The notes beneath the pieces were generated by a model. It was not told the origin of the DNA. It saw only the letters and a list, made by a program, of their open reading frames with translations, and made no database searches. The position numbers were made by a program, and so were the translations under genes. A stretch of 64,000 nucleotides of DNA from Thermovirga lienii DSM 17291 (lineage in GTDB: Bacteria > Synergistota > Synergistia > Synergistales > Thermovirgaceae). Every line of letters starts with the position of its first letter. Position 1 is the stretch's first letter. This document shows, one piece after another, positions 1-34,397 of this stretch. The stretch covers positions 1,328,501 to 1,392,500 of the forward strand of contig CP003096.1 of the NCBI GenBank assembly GCA_000233775.1. The letters run 5' to 3'.

Positions 1-787
1 CAATCTCTTTGGCCTTCTCCTTACCAGGCGGACAACCACCAAAGGCATAAGCTTGGGGGATTACCTCACCTAACATCCGGTCAGCAGCCAGGGCATCCAT
101 CATGTAACGCAACACAGGGTCATTAATACTATAACCAACAAAACAAACAATATAATTTCGGAATAATTCACTAACGAACCGAGCTGCCCAGCGTTCTGTG
201 AGGTATGCTAGACCAAAATCACCGCTGGTCAGCACCAACTGATTCAAGGCAACTTCATCATCCTTGTCCATTGGCAACCGTCCATGCAAATATACAAGTC
301 CATTCCATCGGCTTTTTTTTGGGATTGGCAGCATAGGCGCAACAAAGGAGTTGAATGAATGCTTATTCTTTCTGCGTAGAGCAATATGTTCAAAGATAAG
401 ATCAAAATTTGTGGTTACTAGACGTAGGTTCCCTTCACGATCTTTAGCTAGTTGCAACAAGGCTTCGTGGGTATGGGTCGCACCTTTACGGCGCAGTTTC
501 GGTTCCAAAATCTTAGGCAGTACCCGTCGCATTGCCTGGCGCTGGCCTGGCAACCGTCGCTCCAGTAGATCTAACGTGACATCATATTGTCCGCGCTGAT
601 AAACCTTATCTTCTGGAGGTGTTAGAGTTGTTCCGATGAGTTTATAAATCTCATCCACCAATTCTTTAAACCCGGGTAACCCCGCTGGATAAGAGATCCC
701 AGCACCACAAAAGAAAACGACACGTCCTTCCTCGTGTGCATCCAACAATGTTTCTGGTATATCCGGACCGTTAGATATAAACTGTAT
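1..787 (-). CDS. SIR2-domain protein, C-terminus outside window, apparent ATA start
   Basis: The minus-strand frame is open from 787 to the window edge (262 codons) with no stop. It reads as a SIR2-like NAD-binding domain: the N-terminus has VVFFCGAGIS (about residues 23-32), followed by VTTNFD, a YLHG histidine motif, SGDFG and FVGYSINDP. SIR2 domains of this kind in bacterial defence genes (for example ThsA, Dsr) degrade NAD+ on infection; that role here is inferred from its place beside a restriction locus. No ATG, GTG or TTG lies at the expected start. A strong GGAGGAG (794-800) sits six bases before ATA (785-787), and the frame is closed by TAG just upstream. Either AUA is used as a rare initiator or an ancestral ATG has been lost. 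The C-terminal partner domain cannot be seen. The domain call is firm; start and activity are uncertain. Confidence 0.8.
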   Translation of the reverse strand, partial: MQFISNGPDIPETLLDAHEEGRVVFFCGAGISYPAGLPGFKELVDEIYKLIGTTLTPPEDKVYQRGQYDVTLDLLERRLPGQRQAMRRVLPKILEPKLRRKGATHTHEALLQLAKDREGNLRLVTTNFDLIFEHIALRRKNKHSFNSFVAPMLPIPKKSRWNGLVYLHGRLPMDKDDEVALNQLVLTSGDFGLAYLTERWAARFVSELFRNYIVCFVGYSINDPVLRYMMDALAADRMLGEVIPQAYAFGGCPPGKEKAKEI

Positions 788-1013
788 TTTCTACTCCTCC
801 TTAAAAAATATTATCGTTGCCTCAACGCCGGATTGGTTAAGGACATTAATCTACTCAGCAGTATTTCACCCAAAAAACTGCATGGACATCATTGGTTTCC
901 ATATCCTTTCTCCCCAAATTTCACACCAAAACATCCTTTTAAAATTTCTTACTTCAAGAGATTAAGTCCTTCGCCTATATCCGACTTGACAACCTTGAAA
1001 GCAATAATCTAAC

Positions 1014-4000
1014 TCATGAGCTCTTATCACTGTGCATTTGGGCCTTAGGATTTGTCGTGCGTGGTGATTTATGCGATAGCACATCCGCAAACTTGTTCGC
1101 AACAATATATTTCGCATGGTTTTCATGAATTTGGGCAATTGCATTAAAATGTTTCTCTCCACAGTTTATCTTGGCTCTTTCTGTATTCCGCAGATCACTT
1201 TTATAAGCGGAACCCTTAGTTTCCACCACAAAATAGAGCTTCTCGCCCTCTTCTGTGTCTACCAACACTGCCCAATCAGGAGTATAGCTCCCTAATGGCG
1301 TCGGTACCTTGAACCAACCTGGCAGCTTGGCATAGAGTTTTACCGCCTCATGCCTTTCCATGTCTTCCGCAAACCGACGCTCGACATCAGATTCGCATAT
1401 CACATGCTCATATAGTGATTTCTTAGTATTCTCAAGCATGTTCTTCAGATAACCAGAAAGTTCTTCCTGTTCAAATAGTTCTTGGGCATAATATTTGCCC
1501 AATCGCTGGTATTTGATTCCATCCACCAACGCCAGTTGTTTAGTTTTATTGATGGCATCGGCCACTATGTCTATAAATGCTTGGGGGTTTCGTCTAAAAT
1601 CATCCAGCCGTCCGCTCTCCATGACAATCTTTAACAAAGAGCGGCGGGTAAGTTGAGTGCGATCTTGAAGCACAGTTAGCAAGTCTGGAAGCTCAATATC
1701 CTGCTCATTCATAGTGGCAGAATCCGCACCTTCTTTTTCTTTTCCTTCAACTCCAGCCTTGCCAATGGCAATGTCAGCCTTACGCCATTCAAGGCGAGTT
1801 TCTCTGATTTGCGGAGCCTCCCGAACAGCTTTAACACAATCAGCAATCAATTTGTCATTGTCAAACCACACGCGATAGGTAGTCTTATGTTTGATGCGCT
1901 CCCACAACGCTTTGAAATCTTCGCTCAAATACACTTCCTTACGAAGTTTGACGGTACGACGCTCGTCGGCATTTTTGATTTCCAACCTTCCTGCGGCCTT
2001 TTTAAGAATTGCTGTGATCTCCTCACGATAAGATTCCATTTCTTTGGGCAATTCCAGGGTCTCGTTTTTCAAGGCTACCCGGAGGGTATCCTGCACCCGG
2101 TCCTTATTGTCTAGATAACCCTTATCTTTGAAGAATCGCCAAAGCTCCTCGGACTGTTCTGCACCTAGCGGCTGCTCGTTATCCTGTTCGTCCACTACGT
2201 GCATAGCCGCAAACTGGTGTTTTTCAACTACACCAAAACGAATCCCAGTATCTTCTTCTATCTCTTGTTGCAAATTACGGGCAAAATCCTCATAACTTTC
2301 ATTGGCAATTACCGTCAAAGTGTTTACATCAAATCCATGCACCCTACGACCAGACTGATCAACGCATAAACGCAGGCCTCGTCCAATTGTCTGGCGACGT
2401 TCCCGCTCAGTACGGATATCCCGCAAGGTACAAATCTGGAAGACATTGGGATTGTCCCAACCCTCTCTAAGGGCAGAATGGGAAAAAACAAAACGCAGTG
2501 GCTCGTCCAAAGAAAGCAGTTTTTCCTTGTCTCGCATGATCAAATTGTATGTGTCTTCGTCCGCTTTGCTTTCGCCAGTGGTATCCTTAAAAAGCTCCAC
2601 TGTTTTCCCGCCAATCCGCTTACGGTCAATGGAAAAATAACCATTGTGAATCCTCTCAACCAGCAGGTCTATATTCTCGCCCTCAAACAGCTTTCGATAC
2701 TTAGGTTGCCTAACCGCTCGTTTGAATTCTTCCTCAAAGATCTGCGCATAATCACCCTTTATCGGGTTGCCGTCTTCATCGTATTTACGGTATTTTGCCA
2801 CTTCGTCGATGAAAAATAGAGACAACACCTTAATTCCTCGCTCACGTAGTCGTAACTCTTTATCCAGATGTTCTTTGATGGTACGGCGAATCATATGCCG
2901 GGCTAACTCATTTTTATCAACATCTCCATAAGATTGACCTGGCTGCAAGAATTCTTCCCCACCTGGGAAGCGGAGTTCCATGTACTGGTTATCCCTAGCA
3001 ACGGATATCTCGCCAATTATGTAGTTCTCATACAGATTGCGGCCCGTCGTTTGCTTCAGATCGTCCCCGTCATAGACGGTGACTTCTTTGCGTTTGACAC
3101 CAGATCGAGTCTGCACATCGAGCTCTACCACGGCAGAAATAACATTGCCCTTGTTTTGCACCTTTATCAAGCGAACGTAGGGTTTGTTGTACCCCGCCTC
3201 AACCGTGGCAGCGGCTACTTCGATCTGCTTGACCAGCTTGCGTTCATAGGCATCGACAGCATCCAGACGATAAACCATGTGATATTTGTGCACGTGGGTG
3301 GCTGAATAGCGCAAAGTACAAAGGGGATTCATCGCCTCCAACGCCTCTTTGCCCTTTCCTTTGAGACCTCCATCTACGCTTTGCGGTTCGTCAACGATCA
3401 GAATGGGGCGAGTTGCCCTAATAAGATCAATAGGTTTTTCTCCACCAGTCTTTTCACTGTCCTTATAGAGGTTGTTTACGTCCCTTTTGTTTATAGCCCC
3501 CACCGTTACTATCATGATCTTAACATTTGGACTGGTTGCAAAATTACGCACTTGTCCAAGCTTGGCCGAATCATAGATAAAGTACTCGAAAGGGACACCG
3601 GCATAAAGGCTCTTAAAGTGATCTTCGGTAATCTGTAGAGTTTTATAGACTCCTTCCTTGATGGCCACTGAAGGTACTACGATCACAAACTTGGTAAAGC
3701 CATAACGCTTGTTGAGCTCAAAGATAGTGCGCAGATAAACATAGGTTTTACCCGTGCCAGTCTCCATCTCCACAGTAAAGTCACCGGAACGAAGAGTAGA
3801 GTCAATAGGCAAGCCATTGCGTAGCTGTACCGCCTGCAGGTTTTTTAGGATCTCATCATCAAGCAAGGTCAGTCGATTGCCAATGCCAAGTGCATCACCT
3901 TGGTATTCCAGTGCCAATTGACCATCTATCGCTCCTTGAGTTACAGTAAATTCCGTACGGCAAATCTCCTGTCCGCGAAAGAGGTCACACACTGCTTCAA

Positions 4001-4046
4001 TGGCTTGAAGTTGATAGTCAAGGTTTGACTCAAAATGCAGTCTCAT
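1014..4046 (-). CDS. res: Type III restriction enzyme Res subunit (helicase-nuclease)
   Basis: A 1010-residue protein with the two parts expected of type III Res. The superfamily 2 translocase core has Walker A TGTGKT at residues 96-101, motif II DEPQ at 219-222, an SATH motif, and later a GWDNPNVF/QTIGRGLR region (motifs V and VI). The C-terminal PD-(D/E)xK nuclease shows PD at 923-924 and ExK (ETK) at 942-944, so it looks catalytically intact. Res works in complex with Mod to cut DNA between two unmethylated sites after ATP-dependent translocation. The start is supported by AGGAGG upstream of ATG. The gene begins 11 bases after the mod stop, so the two are probably co-transcribed. Length is at the upper end for the family. 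Confidence 0.93.
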   Translation of the reverse strand: MRLHFESNLDYQLQAIEAVCDLFRGQEICRTEFTVTQGAIDGQLALEYQGDALGIGNRLTLLDDEILKNLQAVQLRNGLPIDSTLRSGDFTVEMETGTGKTYVYLRTIFELNKRYGFTKFVIVVPSVAIKEGVYKTLQITEDHFKSLYAGVPFEYFIYDSAKLGQVRNFATSPNVKIMIVTVGAINKRDVNNLYKDSEKTGGEKPIDLIRATRPILIVDEPQSVDGGLKGKGKEALEAMNPLCTLRYSATHVHKYHMVYRLDAVDAYERKLVKQIEVAAATVEAGYNKPYVRLIKVQNKGNVISAVVELDVQTRSGVKRKEVTVYDGDDLKQTTGRNLYENYIIGEISVARDNQYMELRFPGGEEFLQPGQSYGDVDKNELARHMIRRTIKEHLDKELRLRERGIKVLSLFFIDEVAKYRKYDEDGNPIKGDYAQIFEEEFKRAVRQPKYRKLFEGENIDLLVERIHNGYFSIDRKRIGGKTVELFKDTTGESKADEDTYNLIMRDKEKLLSLDEPLRFVFSHSALREGWDNPNVFQICTLRDIRTERERRQTIGRGLRLCVDQSGRRVHGFDVNTLTVIANESYEDFARNLQQEIEEDTGIRFGVVEKHQFAAMHVVDEQDNEQPLGAEQSEELWRFFKDKGYLDNKDRVQDTLRVALKNETLELPKEMESYREEITAILKKAAGRLEIKNADERRTVKLRKEVYLSEDFKALWERIKHKTTYRVWFDNDKLIADCVKAVREAPQIRETRLEWRKADIAIGKAGVEGKEKEGADSATMNEQDIELPDLLTVLQDRTQLTRRSLLKIVMESGRLDDFRRNPQAFIDIVADAINKTKQLALVDGIKYQRLGKYYAQELFEQEELSGYLKNMLENTKKSLYEHVICESDVERRFAEDMERHEAVKLYAKLPGWFKVPTPLGSYTPDWAVLVDTEEGEKLYFVVETKGSAYKSDLRNTERAKINCGEKHFNAIAQIHENHAKYIVANKFADVLSHKSPRTTNPKAQMHSDKSS

Positions 4047-4057
4047 ACCGGTCCCTC

Positions 4058-5962
4058 CTAGAGGCTTCGCACATTAGGGATGCCGCCTTGCTCTAGAATA
4101 GAGGCAAGGTTGGACTTTGCAACATCGTTCTCAAAGGCATTATCGAGAAAAACACAGGTAGTATCCCCAGCTGGCGCAAGTTCCTTGTGCCATTCCACTA
4201 TACCTTGGCCCAAAGCCTCGGTTTGCTCAGTGGTGATTGTGTTATCCAGGCAGGCCATGAGCACGCCGCCTCCAATGGAATAAACGGTTTTACCGGCAAT
4301 TTGCCTTTGCTCAATGGGCACACATAAATCCAGCCCCAACTTCAGCAACAATTCGTAAAGCAGATCTGCCTCAGTGCGACCTTCTTCTATATGTTCTACA
4401 CTGTCCAACAGACTCGCTTCCAGGTCCTCAGGTCTGGGGTTCCAGGCCTTGATATTGGAACTGTCAAGTTTGAAGACGCGAAAGCCGGTATCTCCATTCC
4501 AATCAGGATATTCTTCTTTAATCTTTTTTGCGGCGCGGCGGAGGCGCTCCTTGGTGAGTTCCGCAATGGTGCGGGGTTTCCCCAGCTTGTCACAATATTC
4601 TGCAGCAACTTTTTGTTCTTTCTTTTCCGGATCAAGTGGCTCAGGAAGCTGAACCAGGATGTAGCGACGGTTGCCTCCGTCGGCTGCGTTCTGAGCCATG
4701 ACAACATGACCGGTTGTGCCGGAACCAGCAAAGAAATCCACAACTATGTCTTTGTCCGTTGATAGCTGCTCAACAATGAATTTGATAAGACTCAATGGTT
4801 TCGGAAAATCAAACACCTTTTGTTGATCAAACATTGCCATAAGCTGCTTTGTGGAATTTTCGGTTGAATGCCACCCAAGTGCAGTAATGGCAGCCTTTGT
4901 TTCATTTGTATACGAATCGAAAAATTTCTTCTGCCGTGGCACCCCATCCTTAGATTTCGGGAATAACACGAGCCCATCATCAATCATCTTCTTTACAGTC
5001 GATTCTGAAAACGCCCAATTGCCATAAAACTTGTTACCAGTTTTAGGATCCGTTATGGTGAAGTAGTTATCCTGACTACCAGTTGCTTTCATACTCTCTG
5101 AACGCCACAGGCCGCGCGGATCATTGTCTGGGTTAGCAAAATCAGATTCATCTCGATCTAATCCCCTAAACCTGACATTGTCCGCTATACGCGCATAACA
5201 GATAATATACTCGTGTGTATGCATCAATAGATTCTTTGGTGGCACACCGCGCGCCGCCCGCTTGGTTTCCCACGTGAACTGTGCAACAAACTGTTCCTCC
5301 CCGAATACTTCGTCACAAACTTTCCGCAGGTTGCTTGCTTCACTATCGTCTGCTGATATGCATATCACACCATCATCTCGTAACAAATTACGTGCCAATT
5401 TCAACCTTGGGTACATCATATTCAACCAATCTGTATGAAACCGCCCACTTGTCTCGGTATTTGTGGTCAATGGCGAGCCTTCCTCGTCCACCTGTCCAGT
5501 AAGCCGCTTGTAGTTTTTAATATTGTCTCGGAAGTCATCCTTGTAAACGAAATCCTTGCCTGTGTTGTAAGGGGGATCAATGTAAATGAGCTTCACCTTG
5601 CCTGCGTAGCTCTTTTGCAGTAATTTGAGAACCTCAAGGTTGTCTCCTTCAATAAAAATATTTTGGGTGGTATCCCAATTTTCGCTATCCTCTGGTGCTG
5701 GTCGTAGGGTTCCTGTGCTGGGAGTCAACGCAAGCTGGCGGGCGCGACGCTTGCCAAACCAGTTAAGGCCGTATTTTTCATCACAATCAGTGACAGTCTT
5801 ATCTCCTACCAATTGTTTAAGCACATCTACGTTGACTGAAATTCCTTCTGGACCTTCAGTGATCAGTTCTGGGAACAGAGTTTTCAGTTTTTCAATATTC
5901 TCAGCAATCAGGTCAGCTGACTTAGCTTCCGGGCTATCCGGTGTAATTTTCTTCAAACTCAT
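4058..5962 (-). CDS. mod: Type III restriction-modification methyltransferase Mod
   Basis: A 634-residue beta-class amino-methyltransferase: the catalytic DPPY motif (129-132, in YIDPPYNTG) precedes the AdoMet-binding FAGSG motif (411-415), with the long target-recognition region between them, as in type III Mod and other beta-class enzymes. It should methylate adenine in a short asymmetric site and supply specificity to Res; the site cannot be read from the sequence. Its ATG overlaps the TAA of the upstream DUF4391 gene by one base (TAATG), so translation is likely coupled. No phase-variable simple repeat was seen in the frame. Followed directly by res. Confidence 0.94.
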   Translation of the reverse strand: MSLKKITPDSPEAKSADLIAENIEKLKTLFPELITEGPEGISVNVDVLKQLVGDKTVTDCDEKYGLNWFGKRRARQLALTPSTGTLRPAPEDSENWDTTQNIFIEGDNLEVLKLLQKSYAGKVKLIYIDPPYNTGKDFVYKDDFRDNIKNYKRLTGQVDEEGSPLTTNTETSGRFHTDWLNMMYPRLKLARNLLRDDGVICISADDSEASNLRKVCDEVFGEEQFVAQFTWETKRAARGVPPKNLLMHTHEYIICYARIADNVRFRGLDRDESDFANPDNDPRGLWRSESMKATGSQDNYFTITDPKTGNKFYGNWAFSESTVKKMIDDGLVLFPKSKDGVPRQKKFFDSYTNETKAAITALGWHSTENSTKQLMAMFDQQKVFDFPKPLSLIKFIVEQLSTDKDIVVDFFAGSGTTGHVVMAQNAADGGNRRYILVQLPEPLDPEKKEQKVAAEYCDKLGKPRTIAELTKERLRRAAKKIKEEYPDWNGDTGFRVFKLDSSNIKAWNPRPEDLEASLLDSVEHIEEGRTEADLLYELLLKLGLDLCVPIEQRQIAGKTVYSIGGGVLMACLDNTITTEQTEALGQGIVEWHKELAPAGDTTCVFLDNAFENDVAKSNLASILEQGGIPNVRSL

Positions 5963-6735
5963 TAATGGACTCCTCCCCTTAAACTATTTAACAGGGCTTT
6001 TCGTTCGGCCTCAAGCCGTTTTATTTGCAAATTCAACTCCACCTGCCGGGCAATTTGGCGCTCTTTGGTTGCCTGTTTGCGCAACCGGGCGATTTCATTG
6101 GCCAGTTCGCGTACCTCATGCAACTGTTGTCGTTGTTGCGGTAGTTGATCAATATCTCGAAACAAACAGTAACGGCCGGTTTCGCGCCATGCATCCAACG
6201 CCACTAAACAGGCGAGCCAGCCTTGATATAGAGCCAGCAGACTTGCCTTAGGTTGACGATCCAGCGCTAGGTCTCCCCAGAATGCTTCTGGAACATTCTC
6301 AGTAATAACCGAGCTGTGCGGATAATTGTCTTCCAGCACCATTTTGTCTTTTTCGTTCTGTGACCACCGCTTATGTGCAACAGATAAAAAGGTTTCCTCT
6401 CCTTCGACAATCAGCAACACCGGGTATGGAATAGCGCGGTGCAACAACTCCGTCACTCGCGTCAAACCCGCTCCTTTGCTTGCCAAATCGCGAGTTCGCA
6501 ATTGCAAAATAGCAATTTCCAAATACTCCCTTTGGTCATCAACATAGCTAGGCACACCGATATTGCTAGGCTTGAGACTGACCAGCCAGATTAGAGAATC
6601 GATGCCGTCCTTGACCAGACGCCGGTCAGAAGCTGTTGCAGCAGCTTGATCGGAAAGTACGTCCTTAGGCACGCGCTGATCTATCCTAGTGTTTACGGGA
6701 AGTCCCAAACAATCGATAATACGCTCGCAGATCAT
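5962..6735 (-). CDS. DUF4391 domain protein of the restriction locus
   Basis: A 257-residue soluble protein that I recognise as the DUF4391 type. These proteins are commonly encoded between a HepA/SNF2-like helicase and a type III Mod, which is exactly the position here. It overlaps the helicase stop by four bases (ATGA) and the mod start by one base. The C-terminal third (about residues 205-250) is rich in Arg, Lys, Glu and Gln with heptad-like leucines and is probably a coiled coil, suggesting a scaffold or interaction role. No catalytic motif is evident and the biochemical function is unknown. The tight packing argues that it belongs to the same functional complex as the helicase, Mod and Res. 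Confidence 0.75.
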   Translation of the reverse strand: MICERIIDCLGLPVNTRIDQRVPKDVLSDQAAATASDRRLVKDGIDSLIWLVSLKPSNIGVPSYVDDQREYLEIAILQLRTRDLASKGAGLTRVTELLHRAIPYPVLLIVEGEETFLSVAHKRWSQNEKDKMVLEDNYPHSSVITENVPEAFWGDLALDRQPKASLLALYQGWLACLVALDAWRETGRYCLFRDIDQLPQQRQQLHEVRELANEIARLRKQATKERQIARQVELNLQIKRLEAERKALLNSLRGGVH

Positions 6736-9700
6736 CCTTCGTCCTCCGGAAGTATAACTAACCAGGCAACAACTTCAATGTCATCCTGACCAGCAAACTC
6801 ACCTTTTTGTGCGTACGTACCACCCGGCTTGAATAGGCTTTCAATAGCCCGCTCTTGGCTTTTTCCAGCAATGGAAGTAACAGCCTCGGCCAGAAGTTTT
6901 TGCGCTTTTCGCATGTCGGCACCGTTTTTAGTCTGGCGCATCCAGCGGTCAATAGTTTTTTGGTCCGGCAAATCCTTGCCTATGCAGGTATGCTTTAAGA
7001 CATCGAGAATCTGTTTGGCCTGTGTGTATGGCAAGTGCACAACGCCATCCATGGAAACATGTACAAGAGCATAAGGCGCCAGCGGATAGTTGGGTTCAAA
7101 AGCACGGCCGGCCGCGTCGCCAACAACCTGAAGGCAAAAGACAATTCCCGGCGGGACATCTAAATCTGCAGTGGTTGTAACAGCAAAGGCACCGAGTGGT
7201 ATATCATCCAGGATATCTGGATGTTCTTTTAGGTATTCCGCCAACTCCATGCGATAGTCAGATAAGGTGAGGTCAGTGATGGATATACCGGAGGATAGGT
7301 CTTCAAGATCGATCACTGTCTCCTGCAATTTAAGGAGCTGTCTGCGGCGATATTCAAGGTCGTTCATAGGATCGCCGGCCTCCACCTCAATAAGGTTTTC
7401 CTCACCAGTGGCAGAGACATCAAGCAGTACCATACGACCACTTACACGGGCCTCCAGGTTTATGTATTCGTCCAGTTCCATGTTAGGCCAGAAATTGACC
7501 AGTTGGATTTGGGTGTTGGGTGAACCAATTCGATCAATGCGCCCAAAGCGCTGAATAATTCTAACCGGGTTCCAATGGATATCGTAATTGATTAGCCAGT
7601 CACAGTCTTGAAGGTTCTGTCCCTCGGAGATGCAGTCAGTGGCAATGAGCAGGTCTATTTCACCTTGGCTTGCAAACTCTATCGGCCGCTCCTTAGCACG
7701 TGGTGCAAATGCCGTCAGCACACTAATCATGTCCTTACGCAAATTTGGAAGTGTAGTCTTAATACCGCTGGAACCTGTAACCAGAGCACTATTCAAGCCA
7801 AACTCAGTTTGCGCCCAGTGCGCTAGATGCTGATACAGATAGTTGGCTGTATCAGCGAAAGCAGAAAAAATTAACACTTTGCGGTTACCAGGGTTGATCG
7901 GGTTTTCAATTTTTTGCCGAATAACCTCTTTTAGCGCACAGAGCTTGGCATCTAGCTCCGGCGTCACCGCATGCGCCGCCGCCAGTAAAGTCTTGAGTCG
8001 ATTTCGGTCCTCTAAGAGATCTTGCTTCCACCTGATGAGGTCTACATCGGACAACAACACTTTGACCTTTCTCCCAGCCAACAGGCTCTCAAAGGTGGGA
8101 TCGTCAATATCAATATCATTAATATCCAGTTCTTCAATTTCTCGGGTATCCAAATTATCGATTTTCTCCAGCAATGCCTCAATGTCGGCAATTTGCCGTG
8201 CAACAGTAAGGGCAAAGGCGTGAACTGAGCTTTCCATGCGTTTAAGCAAATTGACTCGCATTAATTGAATTAAGCTTTCTTCTCTGTCTACTTGACGGAA
8301 AATGGACTCTCCACCACGCACCTTCGTGCTATATTTCGCATCATACTCTTCGCGCTTGCTCTCAAGCAAATATCGTAATGGTGCGTAAGCAGCTAAGTTG
8401 AGTTTACGGATTTCTCTATTTACCTGTTCGATCGATGGGAAGACACCTTGGGTATCCACGTCTGTCTTAACGTTTATTGGTTTTAGTCGTTCTGGGAATT
8501 TTCCCGTCTCAGCAATCCCATAATATTTTTCGATGTGTTTACGTGAGCGAGCGATGGTGAGTAGGTCTAGTAATTTGAAGTAATCAAAACCTAACATCTC
8601 TATTAGCCGTCCGGGGGTGCGCTCGCCTTCTGGCAAACCCATCCAGCGGTTGAACTGCTTCTGAGCATTACGCGTAGTAACCTCAATGCTCTTGATACCG
8701 TAATCCCACAAGGCATCATCCTTTCCTTCAGTAATGAAGGCAATTTGGTTTTTAAGGTCCGCCAAACGATTATTAACCGGGGTAGCAGAAAGCATCAGAA
8801 CCCTAGTCTTCACCCCTTCACGAATAATACGTCGCATAAGGCGATCATAGCGGCTTTCACGATCTTTGTAGGTAACCTTGTTGCGGAAATTATGCGACTC
8901 ATCAATAACCACCAGGTCATAGTTGCCCCAGTTGACGTGTTCTAGATCAACATCACCTGACATGCCACGATCACGAGACAGGTCTGTATGGTTAAGCACA
9001 TCGTAATTGAACCGATCAGCCACTAGTGGGTTGCGCTTGTCGTTGGCACGATATAATGTCCAGTTCTCTCTAAGACGTTTGGGCGTCAAAACAAGCACCC
9101 GGTCATTACGCAGTTCGTAATATTTGATAATCGCCAAGGCCTCAAAGGTTTTGCCCAATCCTACGCTGTCAGCAATAATACATCCACCGTAACGATTAAG
9201 TTTATCTATAGCTCCTACTACGGCATCCTTCTGGAACTTGTAGAGTTTCCTCCATACAGTGGTTTGATGGATACCTGTAGCGGATTTGACAACGCTCTCT
9301 TCGTCCATAATGTCGCCACGGTCCTGAAAGAGTCGTTTTAATATCAAAGCAAAAATAGTACCTGCCGAATTCAACTGGCACAGTTTTTCCAACTTTTGAA
9401 TGAGGTTTACCTTTTCAATCGGCGAATTTGGTAGTAATGACCATTGGTTGTCAAACCATTGCAATAAGGGCTTAATTTCTTCCGGAGAACTGGTTACTTG
9501 AATAATCCCTAAAGTATTTGCAGGGGTAATGCCCAAACCACACGTCGTCAGTTCTAACGATCCAATAGCACCAAATAACGGATTCTCCCGGTTTTCTGAA
9601 AGGATAATCACCCCTTGTTGAATTGAGCTGTTCGACTCCCTAACATCTGCCACGCGCTTGAGCTTATCAAGTATACGTCTAGCTATCCAATGACTTTGCA

Positions 9701-9929
9701 ACATATTTCTGAAACGCCGATCTGATTCATTACCCTGGATCATGGGCAGGGTTATATTTGTTGGAACAATTAGCCGCAATTGTTGAAGTTTATTTAGGGA
9801 AGACAGAAAACGCTCCAAACCGAACACACTTACATCAGAAGCTGCTACTGAAGCTTGTTTCGCTGCAGGCGACTCTTCATTAAAAGCACTGAAGAACCGA
9901 TGCCCTTCTCCGGCGCTAATTAATTCCAT
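6732..9929 (-). CDS. SNF2/HepA-family helicase with PLD-like N-terminal region
   Basis: A 1065-residue protein. The N-terminal 200 residues resemble a phospholipase-D-like domain (GSLELTTCGLGI near residue 123) but no HxK catalytic pair is visible, so it may be inactive. The SF2 helicase core follows: SVGLGKT (about 255-261), DESH (343-346), MLSATPVNNR (about 379), and C-terminal ATDCISEGQNL and QRFGRIDRIGS motifs, close to the RapA/HepA group. It probably translocates on DNA for the associated restriction system. I place the start at ATG 9929: GGAGG (9938-9942) lies eight bases upstream. A longer frame from GTG 9965 overlaps a truncated brxF-like gene and has no comparable ribosome site. First intact gene of the minus-strand defence operon. 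Confidence 0.88.
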   Translation of the reverse strand: MELISAGEGHRFFSAFNEESPAAKQASVAASDVSVFGLERFLSSLNKLQQLRLIVPTNITLPMIQGNESDRRFRNMLQSHWIARRILDKLKRVADVRESNSSIQQGVIILSENRENPLFGAIGSLELTTCGLGITPANTLGIIQVTSSPEEIKPLLQWFDNQWSLLPNSPIEKVNLIQKLEKLCQLNSAGTIFALILKRLFQDRGDIMDEESVVKSATGIHQTTVWRKLYKFQKDAVVGAIDKLNRYGGCIIADSVGLGKTFEALAIIKYYELRNDRVLVLTPKRLRENWTLYRANDKRNPLVADRFNYDVLNHTDLSRDRGMSGDVDLEHVNWGNYDLVVIDESHNFRNKVTYKDRESRYDRLMRRIIREGVKTRVLMLSATPVNNRLADLKNQIAFITEGKDDALWDYGIKSIEVTTRNAQKQFNRWMGLPEGERTPGRLIEMLGFDYFKLLDLLTIARSRKHIEKYYGIAETGKFPERLKPINVKTDVDTQGVFPSIEQVNREIRKLNLAAYAPLRYLLESKREEYDAKYSTKVRGGESIFRQVDREESLIQLMRVNLLKRMESSVHAFALTVARQIADIEALLEKIDNLDTREIEELDINDIDIDDPTFESLLAGRKVKVLLSDVDLIRWKQDLLEDRNRLKTLLAAAHAVTPELDAKLCALKEVIRQKIENPINPGNRKVLIFSAFADTANYLYQHLAHWAQTEFGLNSALVTGSSGIKTTLPNLRKDMISVLTAFAPRAKERPIEFASQGEIDLLIATDCISEGQNLQDCDWLINYDIHWNPVRIIQRFGRIDRIGSPNTQIQLVNFWPNMELDEYINLEARVSGRMVLLDVSATGEENLIEVEAGDPMNDLEYRRRQLLKLQETVIDLEDLSSGISITDLTLSDYRMELAEYLKEHPDILDDIPLGAFAVTTTADLDVPPGIVFCLQVVGDAAGRAFEPNYPLAPYALVHVSMDGVVHLPYTQAKQILDVLKHTCIGKDLPDQKTIDRWMRQTKNGADMRKAQKLLAEAVTSIAGKSQERAIESLFKPGGTYAQKGEFAGQDDIEVVAWLVILPEDEG

Positions 9930-10129
9930 GCAACTATCCTCCAATTTGACATTGGTTTGTACCACAAGATAAAAACGTTAACAAGTGCCGCAGAGGTATT
10001 TCTCGACACTTTCTGTATTACGGACGTTTTTCCACTTCTTGCTGGACCCACTATCAGGATCAGACGATGATAGAGGCAACATGCCTCGCCAATCATTTGC
10101 AGAATCTTATCCACCATGGACTCCATCAT
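9920..10129 (-). pseudogene. Truncated brxF-like (BREX) P-loop gene
   Basis: A 69-codon frame whose first about 52 residues look like the start of BrxF, the small P-loop ATPase of type 3 BREX systems: LYHRLILIVGPARSGKT is a BrxF-like Walker A region, then ALVNV. BrxF is normally about 150 residues. Here the similarity, judged by eye, stops at about 9974, and the rest (FILWYKP onward) is out-of-frame sequence running into the helicase start, ending at TAA 9920-9922. The frame keeps a plausible ribosome site (AGGGG, nine bases before ATG 10129). No brxC, pglX, pglZ or brxA is present nearby. It reads as a deletion scar where a BREX cassette was cut back to this restriction operon. It might still be translated as a leader for the helicase. 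Confidence 0.6.
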
Positions 10130-10557
10130 TGCTTGTTTCCCCTGCTTTTTGCATTACCTCTTATTCTACCTGCGCAGCCCTAGCAGAACAGGCAGGTCCT
10201 CCAACCAACGGATAACCTTCTGAGTATATCTAGTATAAATTTCGACATATTCCAGAAGTCAGATAACTTCAATGCCCAGGGCGTAGCTTCGTTTTTCACA
10301 CACCAAAATAAACCTCTGGCTCTATACCTGTTGCGCTCCATTGCAAATCATTTGTTTTTAATATAATATTAACCAAGTCATGTGTCAAGAAAATTCTGTA
10401 AGCAATATATAGGCTTGTCTAAAAGACTTTATCAATGTTATACCTCCATCCTTCAACTTGCGCTTCGGCTTGTTCATCTTGGCGCAAGGATGCAATTGTG
10501 CTATAACTTTCACTGGTCGTTATTCAAAAATTTTTAAAAATGTTGGGGGGAAAACCT
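10130..10557. other. Intergenic boundary between defence island and galE
   Basis: No convincing gene. On the minus strand, two TATACT hexamers nine bases apart (plus positions 10223-10228 and 10232-10237) could be -10 boxes for the defence operon, but no good -35 is visible. On the plus strand TATAAT at 10362-10367 may serve galE, with TTGCAA at 10341-10346 only 15 bases upstream. An imperfect hairpin (CTTGCGC at about 10458, GCGCAAG at about 10482, 18-base loop) lies before galE; its role is unknown. The galE ribosome site GGGGGG is at 10545-10550. Confidence 0.35.
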
Positions 10558-33094: not shown

Positions 33095-34374
33095 TGTAGA
33101 TGAGCCTATATTTCGTTCCGTCTACTTTGGTAAAGTGAAAGAGATAATGGAAAAGGCGGGTACCTCTCCTTTATACTGGTGCTGCAACAACAACCAAAAC
33201 AAAGGAAAAAGGAGGTAACCCGCCATGACTTCATTATACCAGCGACTAAAGGAATCAGGGAATCCCAAAGCCCCTATGGAAGTTATATGCGACTTGATAG
33301 AAAAAGGTAAAACAGCCAAAGAAATAGCTAACATCATGGGAATTACTGAAAGATGGGTTAGAACATTGATGAAACGGAAAAAAGATGGCCTATCTGCCAA
33401 AGAATTATTGCACAAAAAAGGTCCCAGATCCCCTCATCCAAAAAGAACTAAACCTCACATCGAAGCTTTGGTTATTGAAACTCAACAGAAAACCAACATG
33501 GGTCCTAGAAGACTTGCAAGAGAGCTGAAAAGAACCCTCAATCTGAATATATCTTCCTACACCATCAGAAACATCTTACGCAGAAACAACGTTAAAACTA
33601 AAAAAGTACGTTCTAGAAACGGAAATAAACGCTACTATGCCAACCTAAACCACTGGGAAGCCCTACAATACTTCCAGATCGATTCAAAACATATAGCAGA
33701 CGCAAAGACTCTCCCACCAAAAGCATATGCTGCCCTGTTTAAATACAGGCTTCCCAAATACCAATTTACCGCTATCGATATCAAAACAAGAATGAGAATC
33801 TTATGCTTCTCCGATGAATGCTCTTTCGCAAATGGCTTCTCCTTCATACTTTACATCGCCTTCCTCATGCGGGCTTTGGGCATCAGACATAGAATGTTCT
33901 TCCAAACTGACAACGGGAGCGAATTCGGCGGATCTGAAGAAAGCAGAAAAAGAAAAATATTGCAGGAAAAATTCCTAGAACCCTTAGGCGTTACTCTCCT
34001 CTCCATACCAAAAGGAGAAAAAGAAGCCCAAGGTTTTGTGGAACGAAGTCATCGCACCGATGATGAGGAATTCTACATACCTGCACTACCTCACATAACA
34101 TCCCGAAAGGTCTTTATGACTTCTGCCGCAAGCTGGGTAAAATATTACAATCAAAAACGATCTCATGGAGGCAGAGATATGAACGGGAAAACTCCAAAGG
34201 AAAAAATATTTGAACTCTCACTAGTCAGTTCTAAAGCCGCTACTTCCATACCCCCTATACTCTTGGACAAAGTAAACACCTTTATACTAAAAATGGTGGG
34301 AGCTCAAAACATCTCCTGGGACTCCCACCATCTCCTTCAACTAATTAAACGGAAGCAATTTGTGGCCCCTTACA
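33095..34374 (+). mobile_element. IS481-like insertion sequence, 1280 bp
   Basis: Ends are imperfect inverted repeats of about 30 bp: TGTAGATGAGCC at 33095 and TGTAAGGGGCC inward from 34374, about two thirds identical when one gap is allowed. The element is flanked by a perfect 15-bp direct repeat. It carries one DDE transposase. TGT termini and a long target duplication fit the IS481 group; the family name is inferred. The perfect duplication implies recent insertion. It lies between the terminator of the NSS transporter and the grd promoter. Confidence 0.85.
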
Positions 34375-34397
34375 TTTTGTTGAATTTAAAAACGTAA
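33225..34397 (+). CDS. DDE transposase, IS481-like
   Basis: A 390-residue transposase. An N-terminal helix-turn-helix region (KEIANIMGITERWVRTL) is followed by an integrase core with acidic residues in FQIDSKH, QTDNGSEF and GFVERSHRT. The second D and E are separated by 43 residues, more than the usual 34-35, because of a charged insertion after GSEFGG. AGGAGG lies nine bases before ATG. The stop lies outside the right inverted repeat: the last six residues (LLNLKT) are encoded by the target duplication and flanking DNA. It is otherwise intact and probably active. Confidence 0.9.
   Translation: MTSLYQRLKESGNPKAPMEVICDLIEKGKTAKEIANIMGITERWVRTLMKRKKDGLSAKELLHKKGPRSPHPKRTKPHIEALVIETQQKTNMGPRRLARELKRTLNLNISSYTIRNILRRNNVKTKKVRSRNGNKRYYANLNHWEALQYFQIDSKHIADAKTLPPKAYAALFKYRLPKYQFTAIDIKTRMRILCFSDECSFANGFSFILYIAFLMRALGIRHRMFFQTDNGSEFGGSEESRKRKILQEKFLEPLGVTLLSIPKGEKEAQGFVERSHRTDDEEFYIPALPHITSRKVFMTSAASWVKYYNQKRSHGGRDMNGKTPKEKIFELSLVSSKAATSIPPILLDKVNTFILKMVGAQNISWDSHHLLQLIKRKQFVAPYILLNLKT
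34375..34389. repeat. Right target-site duplication of the IS
   Basis: TTTTGTTGAATTTAA, identical to 33080-33094. It also encodes the end of the transposase frame. Confidence 0.85.

What the first reader, a model, noticed from the sequence alone, without database searches (positions are those of the whole stretch)
1..9929. Five-gene defence island: helicase, DUF4391, Mod, Res and SIR2
A type III Mod-Res pair is normally a two-gene system. Here it is translationally coupled (ATGA, then a one-base overlap) to a HepA-like helicase with a degenerate PLD-like domain and to DUF4391, and a SIR2-domain gene follows on the same strand. The coupling suggests one machine in which the extra helicase and DUF4391 alter how Mod-Res senses or processes invading DNA. 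SIR2 could be a second, NAD-depleting layer. I know helicase-DUF4391-Mod-Res as a recurrent neighbourhood, but not a described mechanism for the full set.
Basis: partly seen in the sequence, partly recalled or inferred. Interest (0 to 1): 0.65.

Follow-up and report, generated by a model that had tools for sequence, protein, structure and literature searches.

The report
Type III restriction cassette with extra helicase
A bacterial phage-defence island holds a widespread but apparently undescribed four-gene form of the classical type III restriction system, in which a motor protein and a small, possibly adaptor, protein travel with the DNA-marking and DNA-cutting enzymes, while the neighbouring NAD-destroying gene is a separate system.

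Summary
In detail: helicase, DUF4391, Mod and Res lie on the minus strand (9929-1014), coupled as described. The fifth gene, cut by the window edge, is a full-length DSR1 relative.

The five are not one machine. The unit is helicase-DUF4391-Mod-Res. Among 188 genomes of the phylum, all 17 with DUF4391 also carry the helicase, and the four-gene order recurs in bacteria, an archaeon, plasmids and viral contigs. The four proteins co-diverge in 63 cassettes (rho 0.71-0.86), while Mod's central region is swapped independently. DSR1 occurs in 3 of the 188 genomes and sits inside a BREX operon in one.

Two findings point to a mechanism. The helicase's nuclease motif (HxK) is absent at the aligned position in all ~96 helicases of the Mod-Res clade, but intact in all 5 sister helicases without Res and in all 6 outgroups. 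In three of those five loci a DUF4391-like domain is detected at the N-terminus of an unrelated methyltransferase. I infer that DUF4391 docks a non-cutting DNA motor onto Mod, and Res does the cutting.

About half of complete cassettes carry extra genes, many of defence families, in two slots. The island (~14.3 kb without an IS) lies between carA and galE and contains a brxF remnant.

The parts
6732..9929 (-). Snf2/RapA-type helicase with an N-terminal PLD-like domain that lacks HxK (ORF reaches GTG 9965; likely start ATG 9929)
   Evidence: (PADLOC C3a139 'HKD+Snf2' 388 bits); best solved-structure match RapA; Walker A, DESH and QRFGRIDRIGS intact
5962..6735 (-). DUF4391 protein, 257 aa, proposed adaptor; alpha/beta core plus C-terminal helical hairpin
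   Evidence: PF14335 236 bits; AlphaFold2 pLDDT 94.3, pTM 0.90; no solved or viral fold match at E<=0.001
4058..5962 (-). Mod, type III N6-adenine/N4-cytosine-class DNA methyltransferase
   Evidence: PADLOC MTase_III 770 bits; 6k0w Mod 296 bits and EcoP15I Mod 206 bits; DPPY motif
1014..4046 (-). Res, type III restriction subunit: SF2 ATPase plus PD-(D/E)xK endonuclease
   Evidence: PF19778, PADLOC REase_III 1329 bits; EcoP15I Res 4zcf matched in both ATPase and nuclease regions; TGTGKT and TPDW...ETK motifs
1..787 (-). 5' part of a DSR1-type SIR2 gene (separate system); continues outside the window to G000:C1:1325466. The position of the homologues' ATG start reads ATA (787-785)
   Evidence: PADLOC Dsr1 1999 bits, full length; start compared with L056 and L057 homologues
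9974..10129 (-). Remnant of brxF (first ~52-54 codons), scar of a former BREX type 3 operon, directly upstream of the helicase
   Evidence: PADLOC BrxF 60 bits, residues 1-54 of 158; 40% identity to BrxF of G029
10477..10491 (+). Right boundary repeat of the island, TCTTGGCGCAAGGAT; left copies lie outside the window at G000:C1:1324707 and 1323412
   Evidence: the 12-base core occurs only at these 3 places in the genome; homology to the empty site breaks near these repeats

Best explanation
Helicase, DUF4391, Mod and Res form an extended type III restriction-modification system. Mod methylates an asymmetric site to mark self. Mod-Res recognises unmethylated sites, and Res supplies the nuclease. 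DUF4391 is an adaptor that docks a Snf2-type double-strand DNA translocase, whose own PLD nuclease motif has been lost, onto the conserved part of the methyltransferase, not onto its target-recognition domain. The motor then drives or remodels the DNA-bound complex, most plausibly easing the usual need of type III enzymes for two inversely oriented sites or clearing roadblocks. DSR1, one intergenic gap downstream, is a separate NADase defence system sharing the island. Shown: conservation, order, co-divergence, swapping of Mod's central region independent of the motor, absence of the HKD motif in the Res-bearing clade. Inferred: physical docking, translocation and its effect on cleavage.
For: All 17 DUF4391 genomes are among the 18 with the close helicase, of 188; the 15 on contigs long enough also have Res. 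A helicase-only scan of viral contigs found DUF4391+Mod+Res downstream in most loci. Co-divergence rho 0.71-0.86, permutation maximum 0.28. HxK absent at the aligned position in ~96 Mod-Res-clade helicases, kept in 5/5 Res-less sisters and 6/6 outgroups; the helicase tree separates the three groups. A DUF4391-like domain sits at the N-terminus of the Eco57I-type methyltransferase next to three of the Res-less helicases (Pfam E 9e-5 to 1e-3; profile-profile E 7e-6). Mod's central region falls to 10-30% identity between cassettes whose helicase and Res are 89-99% identical.
Against: No experiment bears on the motor or the docking. The DUF4391-like hits are below Pfam's curated cut-off. DUF4391 has no recognisable solved fold. 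Plain Mod-Res lineages nest among cassette Res proteins, so Mod-Res can persist without the other two. Only five HKD-intact close relatives were found, all from viral contigs, and the Mod-Res helicase clade has moderate support (83).
Confidence: 0.55

Rival explanations
1. Helicase-DUF4391 is a defence module in its own right that only borrows Mod's methylation as the self mark and blocks phage by translocation; Res is a parallel, partly redundant effector in the same operon.
For: Relatives pair the same kind of helicase with a methyltransferase and no Res; methyltransferase plus Snf2 motor is the layout of BREX-related systems (PMC12839542). Genomes with Mod-Res alone exist.
Against: In those Res-less relatives the helicase has an intact HKD nuclease motif; in the cassette it does not. 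In the phylum no helicase-DUF4391 pair was found without Res on an adequate contig.
Confidence: 0.2
2. Helicase-DUF4391 is a safeguard: it controls or dislodges Mod-Res on the host chromosome (establishment in a new host, replication forks, repair of accidental cuts) and does not add to attack.
For: The cassette is common on mobile elements that must enter unmethylated hosts; RapA, the nearest solved relative, is a remodeller that recycles RNA polymerase.
Against: 28 of 43 Res-positive genomes in the phylum manage without DUF4391, so it is not generally required for safety.
Confidence: 0.15
3. One reading: all five genes, with SIR2, are one machine with NAD depletion as a dedicated second layer.
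For: Same strand, about 226 bp apart, between the same boundary repeats. SIR2 genes do occur inside one related cassette (SIR2-HerA in L050).
Against: DSR1 is in 3/188 genomes, once inside a BREX operon and once on another contig than the cassette; not found in 11 other cassette records; separate ribosome-binding site; its expected ATG reads ATA.
Confidence: 0.05
4. Mere gene hitch-hiking in a defence island with no functional link among the four genes.
For: Defence genes cluster generally; the cassette slots carry unrelated defence genes.
Against: Fixed order, overlapping reading frames and co-divergence across bacteria and an archaeon, against interchangeable slot genes.
Confidence: 0.03

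Closest known systems
Classical type III restriction-modification (EcoP1I, EcoP15I Mod-Res)
   Same: Mod and Res are full relatives with the core motifs; EcoP15I structures match
   Different: Two extra, co-diverging genes upstream; accessory slots between DUF4391 and mod and between mod and res
Type-2 BREX-related (BR) systems with HKD-Swi2/Snf2 helicase (PMC12839542)
   Same: Snf2 motor with N-terminal HKD-type domain, N6 methyltransferase and a small alpha/beta protein of unknown function (there DUF3780)
   Different: No DUF499 ATPase or DUF3780 among the Pfam hits of the cassette; type III Mod; Res as nuclease; the HKD domain lacks HxK; small protein is DUF4391
DISARM and BREX helicases (DrmD, BrxHI/HII)
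   Same: Related Snf2 helicase (126 and 92 bits); also coupled to a methyltransferase
   Different: BREX core proteins are absent from the island apart from a truncated brxF remnant; none of the other three cassette proteins matches a DISARM component among the hits listed
Defence-associated sirtuin 1 (DSR1)
   Same: The fifth gene matches over its full length; SIR2 motifs TTNFD and YLHG present
   Different: Start codon position reads ATA; separate from the cassette; triggers and phages unknown

Membership tests
Type III restriction-modification | Mod methyltransferase of the N6/N4 class with DPPY | tested here: met
   DPPY in 90/90 Mods of the set
Type III restriction-modification | Res with SF2 ATPase motifs and C-terminal PD-(D/E)xK nuclease | tested here: met
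   motifs in 87-89 of 89
Type III restriction-modification | Composed of mod and res only | tested here: not met
   helicase and DUF4391 are co-inherited members; filed as a variant, not as a classical two-gene system
Type III restriction-modification | Asymmetric site, one-strand methylation, two inverted sites for cleavage | not testable with these tools
   needs methylome and cleavage assays
Active HKD (phospholipase D-type) nuclease in the helicase | HxK...GSxN...E in the N-terminal domain | tested here: not met
   window reads IQQGVIIL...GAIGSLELT; no HxK at the aligned position in the Mod-Res clade
DSR1 | Full-length match incl. SIR2 domain and C-terminal region | tested here: met
   1999 bits over model positions 14-1275
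DSR1 | NAD depletion on phage recognition | not testable with these tools
   expression itself uncertain (ATA at start position)
BREX type 3 | brxF, brxC, pglXI, brxHII, pglZ, brxA | tested here: not met
   only the first ~54 codons of brxF in the island
Type-2 BREX-related system | DUF499 ATPase and DUF3780 | tested here: not met
   no such Pfam hit for the four cassette proteins

The most novel reading that the evidence does not exclude
Snf2 helicase plus DUF4391 is a portable motor-and-adaptor module that plugs onto unrelated DNA methyltransferases. In one branch (Eco57I-type methyltransferase with a DUF4391-like N-terminal domain, no Res) the motor is itself the HKD nuclease; in the other it adopted a type III Mod-Res, ceded cutting to Res and kept only the motor. 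The result is a distinct restriction class whose operon also serves as a landing platform for nested defence genes in two fixed slots.
Probability: 0.4. Interest if true: 0.75.

Novelty: new variant of a known kind. Interest (0 to 1): 0.6.

Why it matters
Such loci are annotated gene by gene or as plain type III restriction, yet in this phylum 15 of 43 genomes with a Res gene carry the four-gene form, and so do many plasmids, including ones from E. coli and Enterococcus. If the motor changes how type III enzymes find or cut DNA, the textbook two-site rule need not hold for them. The natural contrast (nuclease motif present without Res, absent with Res) gives a directly testable account of how restriction systems exchange effector parts. 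DUF4391, a family of unknown function, would gain one.

Tried and rejected
Five-gene machine: rejected on DSR1's independent distribution. Active PLD nuclease in the helicase: rejected, HxK absent. DUF4391 as an enzyme by fold: no solved or viral structure matches at E<=0.001 and no catalytic-looking set of invariant residues. Monophyly of cassette Res: not found; plain Mod-Res nest inside. Promoters and terminators: promoter-like sites do not exceed shuffles (14 against 16.1); not used. The helicase model is only fair (pLDDT 76.5). Literature: DUF4391 occurs in one held paper, seen only by title and abstract and not read further; other searches found no description of the four-gene form; the library lacks most subscription journals, and REBASE was not searched. 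Not examined: the rest of the window beyond about 17 kb.

Full report
WHAT IS THERE. The window is G000:C1:1328501-1392500 of a 2.0-Mb genome. The four coupled genes are confirmed: helicase 9929-6732, DUF4391 6735-5962, Mod 5962-4058, Res 4046-1014, all minus. The SIR2 gene runs off the edge; read from the genome it is a full-length DSR1 relative (1999 bits) with its own ribosome-binding site about 226 bp after res. In two homologues the reading frame starts ATG CA(G/A) TTT ATA...; here the same position reads ATA CAG TTT ATA, so translation is either weak, from an unusual start, or impaired. This rests on one assembly.

THE ISLAND. In a genome of the same genus (G183) and one of the same family (G187), carA and galE are neighbours, about 192 and 417 bp apart. 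Here about 15.7 kb lie between them. Homology to the empty site breaks near a 15-bp sequence (TCTTGGCGCAAG[A/G]AT) whose 12-base core occurs only three times in the genome: either side of a 1.28-kb insertion sequence on the left, and on the right at window 10477-10491. Without the insertion sequence the island is about 14.3 kb. Just upstream of the helicase is a fragment with the first ~54 codons of brxF. So the island holds an extended type III cassette, DSR1 and the scar of a BREX type 3 operon. In G029 the DSR1 homologue sits inside a BREX operon (BrxC, PglXI, helicase, DSR1, PglZ, BrxA), which suggests, but does not prove, that DSR1 here is also a leftover of a BREX locus.

THE UNIT IS FOUR GENES. 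In the phylum (188 genomes) DUF4391 is in 17, the close helicase in 18 including all 17, Res (PF19778) in 43, DSR1 in 3. The two DUF4391 genomes without a Res hit have it on contigs under 5 kb. Plasmids from Paraburkholderia, Shewanella, Vibrio, Acinetobacter, Enterobacter, Levilactobacillus, Enterococcus, E. coli, Citrobacter and the archaeon Methanomethylovorans carry the same order, often after a small HTH or WYL regulator gene. A helicase-only scan of viral contigs returned 76 loci; over all 71 loci with at least 9.5 kb downstream, 57 have DUF4391, Mod and Res by automatic calling, several others fail by ORF calling or breakage, and 4 lack all three. The viral-contig label is the collection's; I did not verify that each contig is viral. 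Distances of the four proteins across 63 cassettes correlate at 0.71-0.86, against a permutation maximum of 0.28; joint inheritance and transfer produce this as well as interaction does.

SPECIFICITY IS SEPARATE. Between close cassettes Mod's central region drops to about 10-30% identity while helicase (92-99%) and Res (89-99%) stay put. I take this region to be the target-recognition domain, from its position in known type III Mods. The helicase and Res therefore do not track the target sequence. DUF4391 varies faster, but about equally whether or not that region is swapped (compare L135/L128 with L135/L134).

LOSS OF THE NUCLEASE MOTIF. Five helicases without Res (L149, L159, L161, L162, L169) keep the canonical HGK...GSSNFT...N.EL motif. 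Six more distant Snf2 helicases of the phylum also keep it. In the roughly 96 remaining helicases no HxK stands at the aligned position; the five pattern hits among them lie elsewhere in the segment (one search lists all ten hits). The tree separates Mod-Res (support 83), Eco57I-associated (98) and outgroup (100) helicases with one change each. The simplest reading is one loss on the branch that took up Mod-Res.

THE ADAPTOR. In four of those Res-less loci a 1200-1560-aa Eco57I-type methyltransferase lies downstream in the same direction (in L162 the contig ends); in three its N-terminus gives a DUF4391 match (E 9e-5, 1e-4, 1e-3, below Pfam's cut-off), and profile-profile comparison of the four N-termini with DUF4391 gives E 7e-6 over 92 columns. 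Fusion of such a domain to a methyltransferase is the basis for proposing that DUF4391 contacts Mod. Its model is confident (pLDDT 94.3) but matches no solved or viral fold; AlphaFold DB of cellular proteins was not available.

SLOTS. 37 of 73 complete cassettes carry extra ORFs between DUF4391 and mod or between mod and res. Pfam finds RhuM, GmrSD, AAA_21, Schlafen AlbA_2, YhcG/DUF1016, Abi_C, TIR, SIR2 with HerA, HEPN and a reverse transcriptase. Some ORFs have no family match. The window cassette has no insert.

NOVELTY. Mod and Res are ordinary type III subunits, so this is a variant of a known kind. I found no description of the four-gene form in the held literature, which is incomplete. 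What is established is the genomics; the motor-adaptor mechanism is inference.

Noticed in passing
window 787-785 (minus), L056 and L057 for comparison: DSR1's expected ATG start reads ATA behind an intact AAGGAGG; the next usable TTG (748) would drop 13 conserved residues.
   Followed up: partly
window 10129-9974 (minus): Truncated brxF remnant directly upstream of the helicase.
   Followed up: yes
G000:C1:1323427-1324706; another copy at about window 33095-34379: A 1.28-kb insertion sequence present in about 17 near-identical copies in this genome, here flanked by a 15-bp direct repeat; unusually long if it is a target-site duplication.
   Followed up: partly
L056 7413-16877: DSR1 homologue embedded in a BREX type 3-like operon between helicase and pglZ.
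   Followed up: yes
L050 10214-13295: SIR2 and HerA genes nested inside the cassette between DUF4391 and mod.
   Followed up: yes
L114 13931-15457: Reverse-transcriptase gene between DUF4391 and mod.
   Followed up: no
L176 539-6496: Helicase and DUF4391 followed by a Piwi-domain gene, with a Res fragment upstream.
   Followed up: no
L089 3953-11717: A shorter, different helicase (684 aa) directly upstream of Mod-Res without DUF4391.
   Followed up: no
L034, L035 (E. coli and Citrobacter IncFIB plasmids): Near-identical helicase and Res with swapped Mod central region; the gene content (own DNA polymerase III alpha, exonuclease) recalls phage-plasmids, from memory. A close form is in 10 of 5426 complete E. 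coli genomes.
   Followed up: partly
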